Source: Pseudodesulfovibrio sp.
GTDB lineage: Bacteria; Desulfobacterota; Desulfovibrionia; Desulfovibrionales; Desulfovibrionaceae
DNA: 64,000 nucleotides
NCBI GenBank assembly: GCA_016342345.1
Contig: JAEINO010000001.1
Span: 62,001 to 126,000, forward strand
Reading direction: 5' to 3'
Shown: positions 2,848-35,329 of the stretch, one piece after another
Numbering within the stretch: the stretch's first letter is position 1
Layout of the letters: each line of letters begins with the position of its first letter
Made by a program: the position numbers and the translations under genes
The notes under the pieces: model-generated
Told to the model about the DNA's origin: nothing
Databases searched by the model: none
What the model saw: the letters and a program-made list of their open reading frames with translations, nothing else

Positions 2848-3729
2848 TTACAATAATCCTGCGTTTTTAAGAACTTGCTCAAGTTTAGGTCTGTTTTCGG
2901 GAAGCAGGGGGACAATGGGCAGTCTAAATTCAGCAGTCGGAAAAATACCCATCATCTGAAGTGCGGTCTTGACAGGGATGGGATTACTTTCCATGAACAT
3001 AGCCCGGTTTACCGGTGCCATTTCAAGGCTCAAGTTCAAAGCTGTGTCCAGTTCCCTATCCATAAATGCCTTGCACATGCTGCTCATCGTCCTTGGCATA
3101 ATGTTGGAAACAACTGAAATAACACCTATACCGCCAGCGGCAAGCAGTGGAAGGACCGTAAAATCATCACCAGACAGCAACTGGAATTTTTCTCCACAGT
3201 ATTCCCTGATTTGAGCCACTTGGGTCAGGTTGCCGGTAGCTTCCTTGATAGCTATAGCTTCAGGAACTTGATCCACAATGCGTTTCAAATCCGCTGGGAG
3301 GAGATTCAAACCGGTACGTCCTGGAACATTGTAGATGACGAAAGGCATTGAGGCTTCGGCGGCAATGGCCTTGAAGTGGGCAATAAGGCCTTCGGGAGTT
3401 GGTTTATTATAATAAGGCGTTATGAGTAGAGCCGCGTTTGCTCCAGCTGCTTTGGCCATTTTTGTAAGTTCAATTGCTTCCTTGGTGCTATTTGACCCAG
3501 CACCAGCAATGACCGGCAAACGACCGTTGACTTGTTCCACACAAATCCTGATGACTCGTCCCTGCTCTTCGTGAGTCATGGTAGCCGCTTCACCTGTTGT
3601 TCCACACGGAACAAGACCGTTTATTCCTTGCTCAATTTGCCATTCGATGAAGTTACGATAGGTTGTTTCATCGATTTCCCCATCCTTGAACGGGGTCGAG
3701 AGAGCAGTAAAAGCTCCTCTGAATTCCAT
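2848..3729 (-). CDS. dapA: 4-hydroxy-tetrahydrodipicolinate synthase
   Basis: Class I aldolase of 293 residues that condenses pyruvate with aspartate semialdehyde in the diaminopimelate/lysine pathway. Lys162 in AIAIKEATGN is the Schiff-base lysine. Tyr133 and Arg138 (VIYNVPGRTG) and the CGTTGE loop at 42-47 complete the active site at the same positions as in E. coli. ATG at 3729 is preferred over ATG 3735, because AGGAGG lies 8 bases from the first and only 2 bases from the second. The gene follows the UshA-like gene by 44 bases on the same strand. lysA, later in the same pathway, is at 59.6-60.9 kb. Confidence 0.96.
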   Translation of the reverse strand: MEFRGAFTALSTPFKDGEIDETTYRNFIEWQIEQGINGLVPCGTTGEAATMTHEEQGRVIRICVEQVNGRLPVIAGAGSNSTKEAIELTKMAKAAGANAALLITPYYNKPTPEGLIAHFKAIAAEASMPFVIYNVPGRTGLNLLPADLKRIVDQVPEAIAIKEATGNLTQVAQIREYCGEKFQLLSGDDFTVLPLLAAGGIGVISVVSNIMPRTMSSMCKAFMDRELDTALNLSLEMAPVNRAMFMESNPIPVKTALQMMGIFPTAEFRLPIVPLLPENRPKLEQVLKNAGLL

Positions 3730-3773
3730 GATCATGTCCTCCTGAGTATATACATTCTGGGCATGCAGCGCCC

Positions 3774-4634
3774 TTACTGGAGGATTGCGCTCACGTCCGG
3801 GTTATCGTGATATTGGTCGCCAAGTCCGATGGAAAGGGCTTTGAAATTGCCAAGTTCCTTCCAAGCAAATGAGGCTGAGCGTTCAGGCCAACCGAATAAC
3901 AATACTTCACTTACAGTCCGGCCCTTATCATAGGGGCGAACCCAAGCACAGCGTCCGTTGGCTTCTATTCTACCAGTTACACCTGAACCTCGTCCGCTGC
4001 CAAATAGAAAATCGGGCACGAAGTCCGGGTTCTGAGCGAGGTATTCGCGTTCTCCGACCCAACCCCAATCTGAAAGCCCTACAATCAAACGAACATTATT
4101 TTGTTCATTCTTTACGGCTTTCGATATTTTTTTGATCAAATTGCCGGAAGGAATATCCTCTCCCTTTGGAAGTGAGGGAAATCGCAGAAATCCGATCTTG
4201 TCACCATTGCTTGATTTAATGATCGTGAAAGGAACTATTTCTTCTGTTTTTCGCCAATTTTCACTGGTTGCTCCGGCATCATGAAAAACATCAGCTTCAC
4301 TCTGTGCGAGCAATCCGATGTCATACTTCATTAAATCAAATGCTTTGGCAAGGCCATTTAAGGCCTGTAGAGTTGGTTTTTTGCCTTCTGGACGCATGAA
4401 TTCCCATCCACCGGATACCAATAGTCTCGGTGTATCCGTTTTGTGAATGTCAGTAAAATACGTAGCCCGCCGGGCCACGCCTCCGAGGGTTTTACCGCCT
4501 CATGAGGGGCATGGTCGCACCGTGCCATATGTATTCGCCGAATATAGGATGGTCAGAACAGGTTGTTTTGCTCGAACAATGTTGGGAATGAGCAAACTGG
4601 CCGCTAGAAGCAGGCAGTAGATAAACCTTCGCAT
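3774..4634 (-). CDS. UshA-like exported protein, probable selenoprotein with UGA recoded at codon 45
   Basis: The frame 3774-4478 (234 residues) starts only at a GTG without a ribosome binding site and lacks the domain's N-terminus. In the same frame upstream, ATG4634 opens a clean signal peptide (MRRFIYCLLLAASLLI, cleavage about VRA-KQ) and the first strand TILYSANTYG. It then reads VRPCPS, then TGA at 4500-4502, then GGKTLGGVARRATYF. GGxARxA is typical of the 5'-nucleotidase/metallophosphatase N-terminal fold, and the TGA falls on the second position of a C-P-S-x motif where cysteine is expected. A hairpin with bacterial SECIS geometry follows (4461-4479). Full length with selenocysteine is 286 residues. 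The usual metal ligands (D-x-H, GD) look degenerate (SANTYG, SGGWEF), so catalysis is doubtful. Function is unknown. The start codon lies one base after the IHF-like gene. An ordinary nonsense mutation is the alternative. Confidence 0.78.
4453..4495 (-). promoter_or_regulatory. Candidate bacterial SECIS hairpin
   Basis: Starting 20 bases after the in-frame TGA, CGTGGCCC pairs with GGGCTACG (8 bp, one G-U) around the loop GGC, at 4461-4479. An outer GTAAAA/TTTTAC pair (4490-4495 with 4453-4458) can close it below an internal loop. Bacterial SECIS elements need a loop whose first two bases include G, roughly 16-37 bases after UGA. Here the loop starts with G about 29 bases downstream. The fit was judged by eye, without a covariance model. 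Confidence 0.65.
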
Positions 4635-4635
4635 C

Positions 4636-4911
4636 CTAATCGTTGATAAATTCTTTCAGCTCTTTACCAGGGCGGAAGAAAGGAAGTTTTTTAGGTTTAA
4701 CTTGGACTACAGTGCCTGTTTTTGGGTTGCGTCCTGTGTAGCCTTCATATTCTTTAATCTTGAAGCTACCAAAACCTCTGATTTCAACACGGTCGCCGCG
4801 AAGGAGTGCTTCCTTGACGGAATCGACAAAGGCTCCAACCACCTTGGTGGCTTCGTCCACATGCATTTTCTTCTGTTCCGACAGAGCCTTGATCAACTCG
4901 CTCTTATTCAT
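4636..4911 (-). CDS. HU/IHF-family DNA-bending protein, IHF-beta-like
   Basis: A 91-residue nucleoid protein of the DNABII family; dimers bend DNA. MNKSELIKAL, RVEIRGFGSF and GRNPKTG (arm tip with the intercalating proline) are diagnostic. RVEIRG together with the C-terminal FFRPGKELKE makes it closer to IHF-beta than to the second family member at 17.8 kb. The ribosome binding site AGGGGG precedes the ATG. The TAG stop is one base before the ATG of the UshA-like gene, so the two are probably cotranscribed and translationally coupled. A candidate promoter lies at 5002-5031. Confidence 0.93.
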   Translation of the reverse strand: MNKSELIKALSEQKKMHVDEATKVVGAFVDSVKEALLRGDRVEIRGFGSFKIKEYEGYTGRNPKTGTVVQVKPKKLPFFRPGKELKEFIND

Positions 4912-6727: not shown

Positions 6728-7824
6728 GAATGTATAATAGGTGGTTTCGAATCATTCCATCCAAATCCCCGTCCAGAAAAGCATCCACATTTCCACTTTC
6801 GCTGTTTGATCGATGGTCTTTGACCAAGCGATACGGTTGCAACGTATATGTGCGAATCTGGCTTCCCCAGGCGATGGTTTCCTTTGCCTGATAATCTTGC
6901 CTGCGGCTTTCCTCAATTTTTTTGAGTTCAACTTCATAAAGTCGAGATTTGAGGAGACGCATGGCTGTTGTCTTGTTTCTATGCTGAGATTTTTCGCTTT
7001 GGCATTGAGCAACTATCCCCGTGGGGATGTGTGTAATGCGAATGGCTGAACTGGTTTTATTGACACTCTGACCTCCCGGTCCGCTGGAGCGGAAGGTGTC
7101 AATGCGCAAGTCCTCGTCTCTGACATCAATTTCAATATCATCGTCCAGATCAGGATAAACATCTACGGAGGCAAACGAGGTGTGCCTTCTTCCTGATGAA
7201 TCAAATGGAGATATGCGTATCAATCTGTGTACACCGGCTTCGCCTTTGAGAAGTCCATAGGCGTGCAGTCCCTCGATCTGGAGAGTAACGCTTTTGATTC
7301 CGGCTTCGTCACCTGGCTGAAAGTCAAGCTGATTGACCTTGAATCCTTTTCGTTCAGCATAGCGATTGTACATGCGAAGCAGCATTTCGGCCCAGTCTTG
7401 AGATTCCACGCCGCCCGCCCCTGGATGAATTTCCAGGATAGCGTTGTACTTGTCGTGTTCAAAAGCGAACATGGTCGCCATTTCCGTGCTAATAAGCCGT
7501 TCCCTGAATACGTCAAGTTGAGCTTCAAGAGTTGTCAGAACCTCTTCATCTGGTTCTTCCTGAGCAAGTTCAAGCCATGCATCAAGTTCATCCTTGGCTT
7601 CGGACATGCCCTCATACATAGCAAGCTTTGAGGTCAGTTGACTTTTTTCCTTGAGGACAGGGGTAAGCGCTTCAGGCTTGTCCCAAGCATCAGGCTTGGA
7701 CAGTTCCTTTTCAATTTCATCCAGCCGTTGCTTAACCTCAGCGTAGTCAAAGACGCCCCCAAAGCGTCTTGAACTGATCAAGGAGTTTTGCTGACGCAGC
7801 TTTCAATTCCGGGTATTCAAGCAT
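6711..7824 (-). CDS. prfB: Peptide chain release factor 2, with programmed +1 frameshift
   Basis: RF2 recognises UAA and UGA and triggers peptidyl-tRNA hydrolysis. ATG7824 opens a 25-codon frame that ends in CTT TGA C (TGA at 7747-7749). A +1 slip on CTT continues in the frame covering 7748-6711 with DYAEVKQRLDEIE, which aligns with the post-shift start of E. coli RF2. A G-rich stretch (TGGGGGCG) just before the site acts as the internal Shine-Dalgarno-like stimulator. Total about 370 residues, normal for RF2. The recognition tripeptide SPF (RISPFDSSGRR) and the catalytic GGQ (SSGPGGQSVNKT) are present. The open frame from 7781 is only the post-shift frame. lnt ends 15 bases upstream. Confidence 0.95.
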
Positions 7825-32890: not shown

Positions 32891-34174
32891 CTACTTGATC
32901 TGTTTCATTCTGGGGAGAGTCTTAACCAATTCTAAAGCAATCCTGAGTTGGTTGTCGCGTTCAAGCATTTCCTTGGCTTTTTCTGCGTCTTCGTCTGCAC
33001 CTTTTTTGGATTTGTCACCATTTTCCAGATGACGAGTCAGATCTTTTTCTCTGACCGTAAATCGGTCACGCATCTTGACATCCTCATCCTTGATCGGCGG
33101 AACAAAGGCAATCTTAAGATCTGGTTCAATACCCTTGGCCTGTATGGAACGACCATTGGGTGTGTAGTACAGAGCTGTCGTCAACTTGATACCGGAACCG
33201 TCAGCCATCGGTATGATTGTTTGAACCGACCCCTTGCCAAAGGAGCGTTCGCCGACAATCAGGGAACGTTTATGATCCTGCAATGCGCCAGCGACAATCT
33301 CGGAAGCCGAGGCTGAACCAGCATTGATCAGAGTCACCAGAGGGACGTGTATCTCGTTGGAATTCTTTGCCGCGTAAAAATCCTTACGGGTAGCTTCATC
33401 CTTGCCCTGGATATAAACGATTGTGCCATCTTCTATGAACGTATCTGCCACGGAAACGGCTTGTCCAAGCAGTCCACCAGGATTGTTGCGAAGATCGAAA
33501 ACGATACCCTTGAGAGTATGTTTTTTTTGGTATTCGGCAATCTCCTTGCGAAGGTTCTTAGTAGAAGACTCATGAAACTTGGTCAGTCGAAGGTAAAGGT
33601 ATCCGTCTTCAAGAGATTGGGATTTGACGCTGACAATGGGAATAGTCCCGCGAACAATCGCGACCTCTACAGGTTTGTTGGAATCCTTGTGCATGATCAA
33701 CAAATTGACAGTCGTGCCTTTCTTGCCACGAATAAGCTTGACTGCATCCATGAGAGTCATGTCCTGAGTGGAGTCCCGGTTAATCTCGAGAATCAGATCA
33801 CCGGCCAGAAGGCCCGCCTTGTAAGCGGGAGTGTCTTCGATGGGTGACACTACGATGATACGCCCTTGTTCCTGGCTGATCTCAATACCGATTCCGCTGA
33901 ATTTACCCGCAGTATCAACCTGCATTTCCTTATAATCTTCAGGAGTCAAATAAGCGGAATGCGGGTCGAGCTGTTCGATCATTCCCTTAATGGAATTGTC
34001 GATAAGATCTTTTCTTGAAATTGGTTTAACATAATAGCTCTCGACCATATCGAGAACCTGAGAAAAACGCTTGAGCGCTTCAAAGTGTGTATCCTTTGCA
34101 GCCATGGTCGGACCAGGTGCGAGGGAAAGTGTGAAGAGAAGAAAAAACGTAATTATCCAGAGCGTGACACGCAT
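32891..34174 (-). CDS. ctpA: S41-family C-terminal processing peptidase
   Basis: A 427-residue periplasmic serine protease. Signal peptide about residues 1-25 (ITFFLLFTLSLAPGPTMA). PDZ domain from about 95 to 180 (SGIGIEISQEQGRIIVVSP). The catalytic serine lies in NAGSASASEIVAGAL and the lysine in ERSFGKGSVQT. Such proteases regulate peptidoglycan hydrolases and their activators, which fits its position directly after the EnvC-like gene. Confidence 0.94.
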   Translation of the reverse strand: MRVTLWIITFFLLFTLSLAPGPTMAAKDTHFEALKRFSQVLDMVESYYVKPISRKDLIDNSIKGMIEQLDPHSAYLTPEDYKEMQVDTAGKFSGIGIEISQEQGRIIVVSPIEDTPAYKAGLLAGDLILEINRDSTQDMTLMDAVKLIRGKKGTTVNLLIMHKDSNKPVEVAIVRGTIPIVSVKSQSLEDGYLYLRLTKFHESSTKNLRKEIAEYQKKHTLKGIVFDLRNNPGGLLGQAVSVADTFIEDGTIVYIQGKDEATRKDFYAAKNSNEIHVPLVTLINAGSASASEIVAGALQDHKRSLIVGERSFGKGSVQTIIPMADGSGIKLTTALYYTPNGRSIQAKGIEPDLKIAFVPPIKDEDVKMRDRFTVREKDLTRHLENGDKSKKGADEDAEKAKEMLERDNQLRIALELVKTLPRMKQIK

Positions 34175-34222
34175 AAAAGCCTCCCGCGAATCGGAGTCGT
34201 AATATTTTGAGTTAACAACGCA

Positions 34223-35329
34223 TCAATTTAAAGCGGTTAACCAGAGTTTTGGATTAATTGGTTTTTGATGAAAACGCAATTCAAAATACAACCCAGGTCC
34301 ATTGGTAGTAGGATAGAAGCCAACAACACCAAGCGGTTCATCTTTTTCAACCTCCTGACCATTTCGAACGTATGTTTCCGATAAATAGGCGTAAAGACTA
34401 TAGTAATCGAATCCATGATAAACAATAACGACATGCCCGAACCCCCGCAAAGTGTCATTGTGAACAACTTTGCCCCAAAAAACAGATTGAACGCTAGCAC
34501 CTTCCTTTGTCTTAATGGCAAGACCGCGGACAGGCGGAGTTGCATCAGGGTTGAATCCGGCGACCAAGCGACCTTCGGCAGGCCAGGGGAGGGTACGCTT
34601 ATAAAGAGAAAATCGTTTGGTTTTCTGAAATTGAAGTTGGTATTTGAGATTTTCAATTGTCGAAAGAATCTCACTGAGTTCACTTTCAATGTCGTGCCGT
34701 TTGATTCTGATTTTTTTCAGATTCTTACGAAGGGCATACTTGTTTCCAAGGAGACGATCCTTGCTTTTATTGATTTGGGAAAGTTGCATTTCTGCTTCTT
34801 TTTCCAAAAGACGCTGCCTCTCCAGATTCCTGACAATTCGCTCCGAATTGATGCGAGCTTCAGTAAATTTGGCATTTGTGGCGTCATAAATATCCGTCAA
34901 CCAGTTGAAACGACGATCAAACATGTCCCAACTGTCCACCCCTTCAAAACGAGTTCTGACATTTTGCAGATGAACTGGCCATAATGTCTGAATCAGATTG
35001 GATAATTCAATGGTAATCCGCTTTTTTTCCGTTTCAAGTACAAAATGATATTTTCGAGCCTCTTGTTCACTTTTTCTGATTTCCTTGAGTGTCTTTTCCT
35101 GAGAACGAATTCTGGTTTTAAGCAAATTCACATCGTATTCAATATCAGAAAGACGCATGGATATTTGTCCGGCCTGTTGCGTGAGAGCCCGGACCTTTTT
35201 TTCATTTTCGTCTGCACGCTGATGTTCCTGCTGCAAAGTCTCATGGATAGTATCGTCCTGATCCTGAGCCGACATGATGGCAGGAGCAGTCAGAAAAACA
35301 ATGAATAGCGCAAAAGAGAATCTGTTCAT
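34223..35329 (-). CDS. EnvC-like murein hydrolase activator with degenerate M23 domain
   Basis: A 368-residue exported protein: signal peptide (about 1-21), a long coiled coil (about 30-245) and a C-terminal LytM/M23 domain (about 260-368). The zinc ligands of active M23 peptidases are missing: the H-x-G-x-D segment reads VRGLAIKT, LYAHLS reads LYAYLS, and the HxH segment reads LYFELRF. That pattern is typical of EnvC, which activates amidases and does not itself cut. It heads envC-ctpA-yibQ-like and follows the glycosylase gene by 5 bases. Confidence 0.9.
   Translation of the reverse strand: MNRFSFALFIVFLTAPAIMSAQDQDDTIHETLQQEHQRADENEKKVRALTQQAGQISMRLSDIEYDVNLLKTRIRSQEKTLKEIRKSEQEARKYHFVLETEKKRITIELSNLIQTLWPVHLQNVRTRFEGVDSWDMFDRRFNWLTDIYDATNAKFTEARINSERIVRNLERQRLLEKEAEMQLSQINKSKDRLLGNKYALRKNLKKIRIKRHDIESELSEILSTIENLKYQLQFQKTKRFSLYKRTLPWPAEGRLVAGFNPDATPPVRGLAIKTKEGASVQSVFWGKVVHNDTLRGFGHVVIVYHGFDYYSLYAYLSETYVRNGQEVEKDEPLGVVGFYPTTNGPGLYFELRFHQKPINPKLWLTALN

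What the first reader, a model, noticed from the sequence alone, without database searches (positions are those of the whole stretch)
3774..4634. Probable new selenoprotein: UshA-like exported protein with in-frame UGA
The downstream open frame is truncated and has no start signal. Continuing upstream through a single TGA (4500-4502) restores a clean signal peptide, the first domain strand and an ATG one base after the preceding gene. The TGA replaces a cysteine-like position in CPS-x-GG before a conserved GGVARRA. No other stop or shift is needed. Metal ligands of the phosphatase fold look lost, so a redox role for selenocysteine is possible.
Basis: partly seen in the sequence, partly recalled or inferred. 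Interest (0 to 1): 0.85.

Follow-up and report, generated by a model that had tools for sequence, protein, structure and literature searches.

The report
Exported selenoprotein of a known family
This bacterial gene almost certainly reads one UGA stop codon as selenocysteine, but it belongs to an already catalogued selenoprotein family of sulfate-reducing bacteria whose function is still open.

Summary
One in-frame TGA (4500-4502) splits a 286-residue, probably exported protein (3774-4634, minus strand). Homologues have TGA or TGC at that codon and nothing else: 86 and 16 of 102. Codons just before the TGA are under purifying selection in this frame only (dN/dS 0.11). A hairpin meeting published bacterial SECIS constraints follows, though its shuffle z-score is only -1.58. 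The genome has selA, selB, selD and tRNA-Sec. In 28 rechecked genomes selB passes its cut-off in 14 of 16 with TGA and 1 of 12 with Cys only.

It is not a new selenoprotein family: NCBIfam NF049981 matches at 323 bits, cut-off 140, and a 2026 review lists it.

Added here: a 5'-nucleotidase-type fold with changed metal-ligand positions; at least six Sec/Cys switches on a tree; further copies beside ccmF-type or prepilin-type genes; and nine distant CPxU/CHxU relatives below both NCBIfam cut-offs. Best guess: a periplasmic thiol/selenol redox protein on a dead phosphoesterase scaffold. That function is inference.

The parts
3774..4634 (-). UshA-like (seleno)protein family 2 gene, 286 aa with Sec45 (stop TAA included)
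   Evidence: NF049981 322.9 bits, cut-off 140, residues 27-286 matched to profile 1-262 of 262; translation
4500..4502 (-). UGA codon read as selenocysteine 45
   Evidence: column is 86 TGA, 16 TGC, 0 other in 102 homologues
4509..4511 (-). Cys42 of the CPSU (CxxU) motif
   Evidence: Cys in 138 of 140 family rows, 131 of them distinct (rows were picked with a motif pattern, so the number is biased); the two exceptions are L076 and L077
4460..4480 (-). bacterial SECIS-like hairpin, 9 bp stem, apical loop GGC (4469-4471), 28 nt after the UGA
   Evidence: constraints as printed in PMC13188914
4569..4634 (-). signal peptide, residues 1-22, probable cut after VRA
   Evidence: read from the sequence by eye and helix 2-14 in the model; no signal-peptide program was run
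4636..4911 (-). HU-type DNA-binding protein gene, directly upstream
   Evidence: ORF; HU match within 300 bp upstream on the same strand in 102 of 121 loci with over 600 bp of upstream flank, some loci fetched twice; the name is recalled from the sequence, not from a search
2848..3735 (-). dapA-type gene downstream
   Evidence: ORF; same-strand match within 1.5 kb in 75 of 118 loci with over 1 kb of downstream flank; name recalled

Best explanation
The gene is a true selenoprotein gene. SelB with Sec-tRNA decodes UGA 4500-4502 with the help of the hairpin 28 nt downstream (inferred from sequence; no protein data). The product is exported, folds as the N-terminal domain of 5'-nucleotidases, and has changed metal-ligand positions, so it is unlikely to be a phosphoesterase. 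The Sec/Cys45 with its near-invariant partner Cys42 (CPxU) lies in the loop after the first strand, close to the vestigial active site by fold topology. Most likely it acts as a periplasmic thiol/selenol-disulfide redox protein, perhaps on c-type cytochrome precursors or other exported thiol substrates. Shown: recoding signature, co-distribution with selB, fold model, ligand changes, gene neighbourhoods. Inferred: export, redox chemistry, substrate. The recoding part alone I hold at about 0.97; the confidence below is for the whole statement with the redox function.
For: Sec: 86 TGA and 16 TGC of 102; dN/dS 0.108 for residues 27-44 in 24 genus sequences, against 1.6 and 3.4 in the other two frames; tRNA-Sec 76.2 bits with TCA anticodon, selA 608, selB 391, selD 333 bits, each over cut-off; SelD itself carries an in-frame TGA in KAAGU. 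selB over cut-off in 14 of 16 TGA genomes and 1 of 12 Cys-only genomes, p 5e-5 ignoring kinship. Hairpin stem of 6 bp or more in 78 of 83 distinct Sec genes against 6 of 15 Cys genes. Fold: model pLDDT 96.0; the 50 listed PDB matches are 5'-nucleotidases, best E 3e-14 (one of them named so only). Ligand positions changed. Redox hint: 6 of 6 fetched non-tandem second Sec copies sit between a TPR gene and a P-type ATPase gene, with CcmF seen before the TPR gene in 5; the related family 1 protein L157 ends in a multihaem cytochrome.
Against: No expression or mass-spectrometry data. Window hairpin z-score only -1.58; 16 of 200 shuffles fold as well. The inner stem encodes the conserved LARRA, so its pairs hardly vary; 43 of 44 both-sided changes fall in two outer pairs, which are themselves paired in only 40 and 51 of 83. 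7 of 83 Sec genes miss the hairpin criterion and 9 of 15 Cys genes meet it. Two Sec homologues lack the partner Cys, so CxxU chemistry is not universal. N34, Q111 and D189 could in principle still bind a metal. The usual neighbours, HU and dapF/dapA, say nothing about redox. The TPR gene's match to the CcmH/CycH TPR model is below its cut-off, 34.5 of 42 bits.
Confidence: 0.5

Rival explanations
1. True selenoprotein, but Sec/Cys45 with Cys42 binds or carries a soft metal or a sulfur/selenium species (selenopersulfide or persulfide carrier) rather than exchanging disulfides; a descendant of a SoxB-like sulfur enzyme.
For: The nine distant CPxU/CHxU relatives match thiosulfohydrolase SoxB well below its cut-off (36-96 of 550 bits); the ccm-linked copies lie next to a P-type ATPase gene; 15 of 16 record titles name Desulfovibrionales-type bacteria (sulfate reducers, recalled).
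Against: The window protein itself shows no SoxB match at E up to 1; most metal-ligand positions are changed; no metal or sulfur gene was seen at the usual locus.
Confidence: 0.25
2. True selenoprotein with a structural or binding role in cell-wall or envelope precursor handling, tied to the dapF-dapA neighbours, with Sec serving a minor protective purpose.
For: Recurrent position before dapA or dapF-dapA; metal-ligand positions changed.
Against: Position 45 is one of only five invariant columns of the 87-row alignment; the further copies fetched elsewhere showed no dapA match.
Confidence: 0.17
3. The TGA is a real stop: a decayed gene, or a short gene starting at GTG 4478.
For: Table 11 gives an open 234-aa frame from 4478.
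Against: Conservation upstream of the TGA in this frame; same TGA in 86 of 102 homologues; TGA goes with the presence of selB.
Confidence: 0.02

Closest known systems
UshA-like (seleno)protein family 2 (NCBIfam NF049981; PMC13188914 table: CxxU, WP_420705249.1, 'GenBank annotated')
   Same: Whole-length match well over cut-off, CxxU motif, Sec or Cys at the position
   Different: Nothing essential; this is a member
UshA-like (seleno)protein, family 1 (NF041198, CxU; COG0737 'UshA-like' of PMC2398784, passages read)
   Same: Same fold region, U before GGLAR
   Different: PCGU not PCPxU, profile of 519 positions, multihaem C-terminus in L157, keeps more ligand-type residues in the rows looked at; window protein scores 37 bits against a cut-off of 275
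UshA / CD73 5'-nucleotidases
   Same: N-terminal domain fold and the GGxARR motif
   Different: Ligand positions changed, C-terminal nucleotide-binding part absent (286 aa against over 500), no Pfam match
Thiosulfohydrolase SoxB
   Same: Profile A1 finds SoxB structures at 3e-7
   Different: No match of the window protein to TIGR04486 at E up to 1

Membership tests
NF049981 UshA-like (seleno)protein family 2 | Score over the curated cut-off (140 bits), full length | tested here: met
   322.9 bits, profile 1-262 of 262
NF049981 UshA-like (seleno)protein family 2 | CxxU motif with Sec or Cys at the last position | tested here: met
   CPSU; 86 TGA and 16 TGC of 102
Bacterial selenoprotein | Sec machinery in the genome | tested here: met
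   tRNA-Sec, selA, selB, selD over cut-off; TCA anticodon. Weak matches to tRNA-Sec, selB and selD ring in all 14 control genomes, so only the over-cut-off scores count
Bacterial selenoprotein | bSECIS: loop 3-9 nt, stem 4-16 bp, G in first two loop bases, 16-37 nt from UGA, energy -7.5 or lower (PMC13188914) | tested here: met
   loop GGC, 9 bp, 28 nt, -14.3 kcal/mol; but the 53-nt fold has z only -1.58
Bacterial selenoprotein | Selenium in the purified full-length protein | not testable with these tools
   needs culture and mass spectrometry
NF041198 UshA-like (seleno)protein | Score over cut-off 275, CxU | tested here: not met
   37.3 bits and CxxU
UshA-type 5'-nucleotidase | Two-metal ligands D, H, D, N, H, H (list recalled) | tested here: not met
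   Window N34, Y36, W77, Q111, D189, G214; the ligand residue stands in 4, 4, 4, 1, 2 and 0 of 140 rows
UshA-type 5'-nucleotidase | N-terminal metallophosphatase fold | tested here: met
   The 50 listed Foldseek PDB hits (105 at E 0.001 or less) are 5'-nucleotidases; 6vc9_A is titled otherwise there but is CD73
UshA-type 5'-nucleotidase | Phosphoesterase activity | not testable with these tools
   needs purified protein
Thioredoxin-fold oxidoreductase | Thioredoxin fold | tested here: not met
   model is a 5'-nucleotidase-type fold

The most novel reading that the evidence does not exclude
CPxU/CPxC proteins on a metal-free 5'-nucleotidase fold are a separate class of periplasmic thiol/selenol oxidoreductase outside the thioredoxin fold, used for c-type cytochrome maturation (ccmF-linked copies) and pseudopilin assembly (prepilin-linked Cys copies). 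It arose from a Sec-bearing phosphoesterase ancestor by stepwise loss of the metal site, with the unassigned CPxU proteins of other families of the phylum as intermediates.
Probability: 0.18. Interest if true: 0.65.

Novelty: new member of a known kind. Interest (0 to 1): 0.35.

Why it matters
The family is catalogued, but I found no function for it in the papers searched. This order offers a natural comparison: TGA mostly where selB is present, Cys mostly where it is not found, and one genus with Sec and Cys copies in tandem. The ccmF-linked and prepilin-linked copies give a testable lead on function. If the redox reading is right, it would be a thiol/selenol catalyst on a phosphoesterase fold.

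Tried and rejected
Two-gene or pseudogene reading: rejected by conservation across the TGA. Altered genetic code (TGA as sense throughout): not supported; 9 of 46 long window ORFs end in TGA. Active phosphoesterase: ligand positions changed, no Pfam match. Rfam scan of the window at gathering thresholds: nothing; tRNA scan of the window: none. A possible second selenoprotein (443 codons open after a TGA, 32891-35329) looks by eye like two neighbouring genes in one frame. Shuffle test of the window hairpin alone is not significant. NF041198 in the own genome: 7 matches, none over cut-off. The VIA library could not be used. The named-genome scan gave 16 loci. deep-Sep paper (PMC12013277): one passage seen, 'UshA' occurs 0 times. 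Papers were seen as search listings or passages only; none was read whole.

The codon column printed caught Cys42 instead of position 45, so for those loci I use the residue letters only.

Rows left out of counts: the locus L001 (copy of the window) was dropped, and the second copies of L053 and L056, which lie in one joined frame with the first, were not counted. The 140 family rows hold 131 distinct sequences. The 6 ccmF-linked and 4 prepilin-linked second copies are the non-tandem second copies I fetched, not all that exist. L151 was not sent to the family search. Start codons of homologues were chosen by script (nearest ATG to an expected place).

Full report
Observation. On the minus strand, 3774-4634 reads as an ATG-started frame of 286 residues with a single TGA at codon 45 (4500-4502) and a TAA stop. 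The ATG lies one base after the stop of the HU-type gene 4636-4911. Standard translation gives only the 234-aa frame from GTG 4478. An open frame after a TGA is not rare enough alone: 1 of 9 long TGA-ending ORFs in the window has one, and there it looks like a neighbouring gene.

Identity. The read-through protein matches NCBIfam NF049981, 'UshA-like (seleno)protein family 2', at 322.9 bits (cut-off 140) from residue 27 to the end; the downstream part alone scores 255.9. Pfam gives nothing. The family is listed in the review PMC13188914 (Appl Environ Microbiol, May 2026; passages seen) as CxxU, WP_420705249.1, 'GenBank annotated'. A search of the paper library for NF049981 finds that paper only; 'UshA-like' with 'selenoprotein' finds three, of which PMC2398784 and PMC9312934 (passages seen) name the CxU UshA-like protein. 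So the finding is real but the family is known. Whether this very gene is annotated in its public record I could not check.

Recoding evidence. (1) In 102 homologues the codon is TGA in 86 and TGC in 16, nothing else. (2) Among 24 sequences of the genus, residues 27-44, before the TGA, have dN/dS 0.108 in this frame; the other frames give 1.6 and 3.4. (3) The genome has tRNA-Sec (76.2 bits, anticodon TCA), selA, selB and selD, each over cut-off; weak matches to tRNA-Sec, selB and selD ring in all 14 control genomes, so only the cut-off counts. selD itself has an in-frame TGA in KAAGU. (4) Co-distribution: 186 of 348 genomes of the order hold a match to the family and 280 of 348 one to selA. 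Reading the two listings against each other, 24 family-bearing genomes lacked selA; these and four of genus g21 with selA were rechecked. Of 16 genomes with a TGA copy, 14 have selB over cut-off (two of these cover only part of the profile, G181 and G338); the other two (G229, G329) show shorter pieces below cut-off. Of 12 genomes with Cys copies only, 1 has selB over cut-off (G183); Fisher p 5e-5, ignoring kinship. Several of these genomes are incomplete (54-97%). Cys at the position was read in all 12: by letter in L122, L125, L126, L128, L131, L134-L137 and L129, and as codon TGC in L160, L161 and L167. Cys also occurs where selA is present (G065-G067), as expected if only Sec needs the machinery. 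(5) On a 69-row tree the Sec/Cys label needs at least 6 changes, one of them at the outgroup row L153; the direction is not fixed, but mostly Sec to Cys is the simplest reading. The bootstrap of that tree had not settled.

SECIS. The hairpin 4460-4480 has a 9-bp stem, loop GGC, 28 nt from the UGA, -14.3 kcal/mol, meeting the four constraints printed in PMC13188914. Stems of 6 bp or more occur in 78 of 83 distinct Sec genes and 6 of 15 distinct Cys genes (p 5e-6 ignoring kinship). Synonymous resampling of the window stretch reaches the observed stem in 2.4% of 20000 and the observed energy in 0.36% of 5000. Against: the whole 53-nt fold has z -1.58 with 16 of 200 shuffles as good; by the published criteria 76 of 83 Sec and 9 of 15 Cys genes pass, so the hairpin is partly forced by the conserved LARRA. 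Both-sided changes were 44 cells in the Sec set, 43 of them in two outer pairs that pair in only 40 and 51 of 83; slid versions gave 2-18 such cells.

Fold and active site. AlphaFold2 on an 87-row alignment gives mean pLDDT 96.0, pTM 0.91. The 50 listed PDB matches, of 105 at E 0.001 or less, are 5'-nucleotidases (best E 3e-14, TM 0.58-0.67 by query; 6vc9_A by its name). A sequence profile also finds 5'-nucleotidases (5e-13) and SoxB (3e-7). Ligand positions of the nucleotidases (their identity recalled) are N34, Y36, W77, Q111, D189 and G214 in the window protein. The ligand residue stands there in 4, 4, 4, 1, 2 and 0 of 140 rows. In ten CPxU/CHxU relatives from other families of the phylum it stands in 1, 0, 5, 0, 1 and 1 of 10, and in four PCGU/PCGC rows in 4, 0, 2, 0, 2 and 3 of 4: a gradient, on few rows. 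Position 45 is C or U in 140 of 140 rows and Cys42 is present in 138, but rows were picked with a motif pattern, so these numbers are biased; the less biased count for position 45 is.

Relatives outside the order. A draw of 395 genomes of the phylum gives 153 with a match, 6 over the family cut-off, all six in the window's own family, and most of the weaker matches that are listed carry one TGA (the list is cut). Nine CPxU/CHxU proteins from such loci, all with TGA (L146-L150, L152, L154-L156; L151 is similar but was not sent), score under both cut-offs: 81-111 of 140 for NF049981 and 135-237 of 275 for NF041198. They look like an unassigned intermediate group; in the tree they fall with the family 1 rows, apart from family 2 (midpoint root).

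Neighbourhoods (gene names recalled unless a search is cited). The usual place is prfB, GGDEF, ParA/MinD-type, HU, this gene, then dapA directly or dapF and dapA: HU match just upstream in 102 of 121 loci, dapA within 1.5 kb in 75 of 118. One genus (g39) has a Cys copy and a Sec copy in tandem. Six further Sec copies fetched from elsewhere (L094, L095, L098, L110, L188, L189; three genera of two families) lie between a TPR gene and a P-type ATPase gene; CcmF precedes in 5, and the sixth contig starts too late to tell. Pfam was run on the L095 neighbours only: CcmF 137.5 bits over cut-off, the TPR protein 34.5 of 42 bits for the CcmH/CycH TPR model, below cut-off. Four second copies without TGA (L197-L200) have Cys at the position (TGC in three, TGT in L200) and lie among genes with prepilin-type N-termini, recognised by eye. 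In 4 of 10 distant loci (L146, L147, L152, L155) a CCG/4Fe-4S protein gene is near.

Reading. I take recoding as nearly certain (about 0.97). For function I prefer a periplasmic thiol/selenol redox protein on a scaffold that has lost phosphoesterase metals (about 0.5): the conserved centre is CPxU, the metal site is changed, and some extra copies sit with a cytochrome c maturation gene, in line with a family 1 protein fused to a multihaem cytochrome (L157). This is inference. A metal or sulfur carrier role, and a wall-linked role, remain open.

Noticed in passing
window 7746-7752 (-), with ATG at 7822-7824: prfB-type gene shows the usual release factor 2 arrangement: an upstream short frame ending CTT TGA C after a G-rich stretch, then the main frame. 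Ordinary; the rule is recalled. CTTTGAC itself occurs 20 times in the window.
   Followed up: partly
L051-L058, L060-L063, L066, L067 (genus g39): Cys copy and Sec copy of the same gene in tandem behind HU: a natural paired comparison.
   Followed up: partly
L146-L152, L154-L156: UGA-containing CPxU/CHxU UshA-like proteins from other families of the phylum; nine scored, nine under both NCBIfam cut-offs (L151 not sent): possibly an unassigned subfamily.
   Followed up: partly
L094, L095, L098, L188, L189 and cut-off L110: Cassette CcmF, TPR protein, UshA-like Sec gene, P-type ATPase, and M23 peptidase where visible, shared by three genera of two families.
   Followed up: partly
L197-L200: Cys-type paralogues among genes with prepilin-type N-termini.
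   Followed up: partly
G282:C6:67181-67943 (same genus): The family match is split into pieces, one with a TAG, so this copy looks broken or misassembled.
   Followed up: no
L076 and L077: Sec homologues in which the partner Cys is replaced (PLRAU, PIKAU).
   Followed up: no
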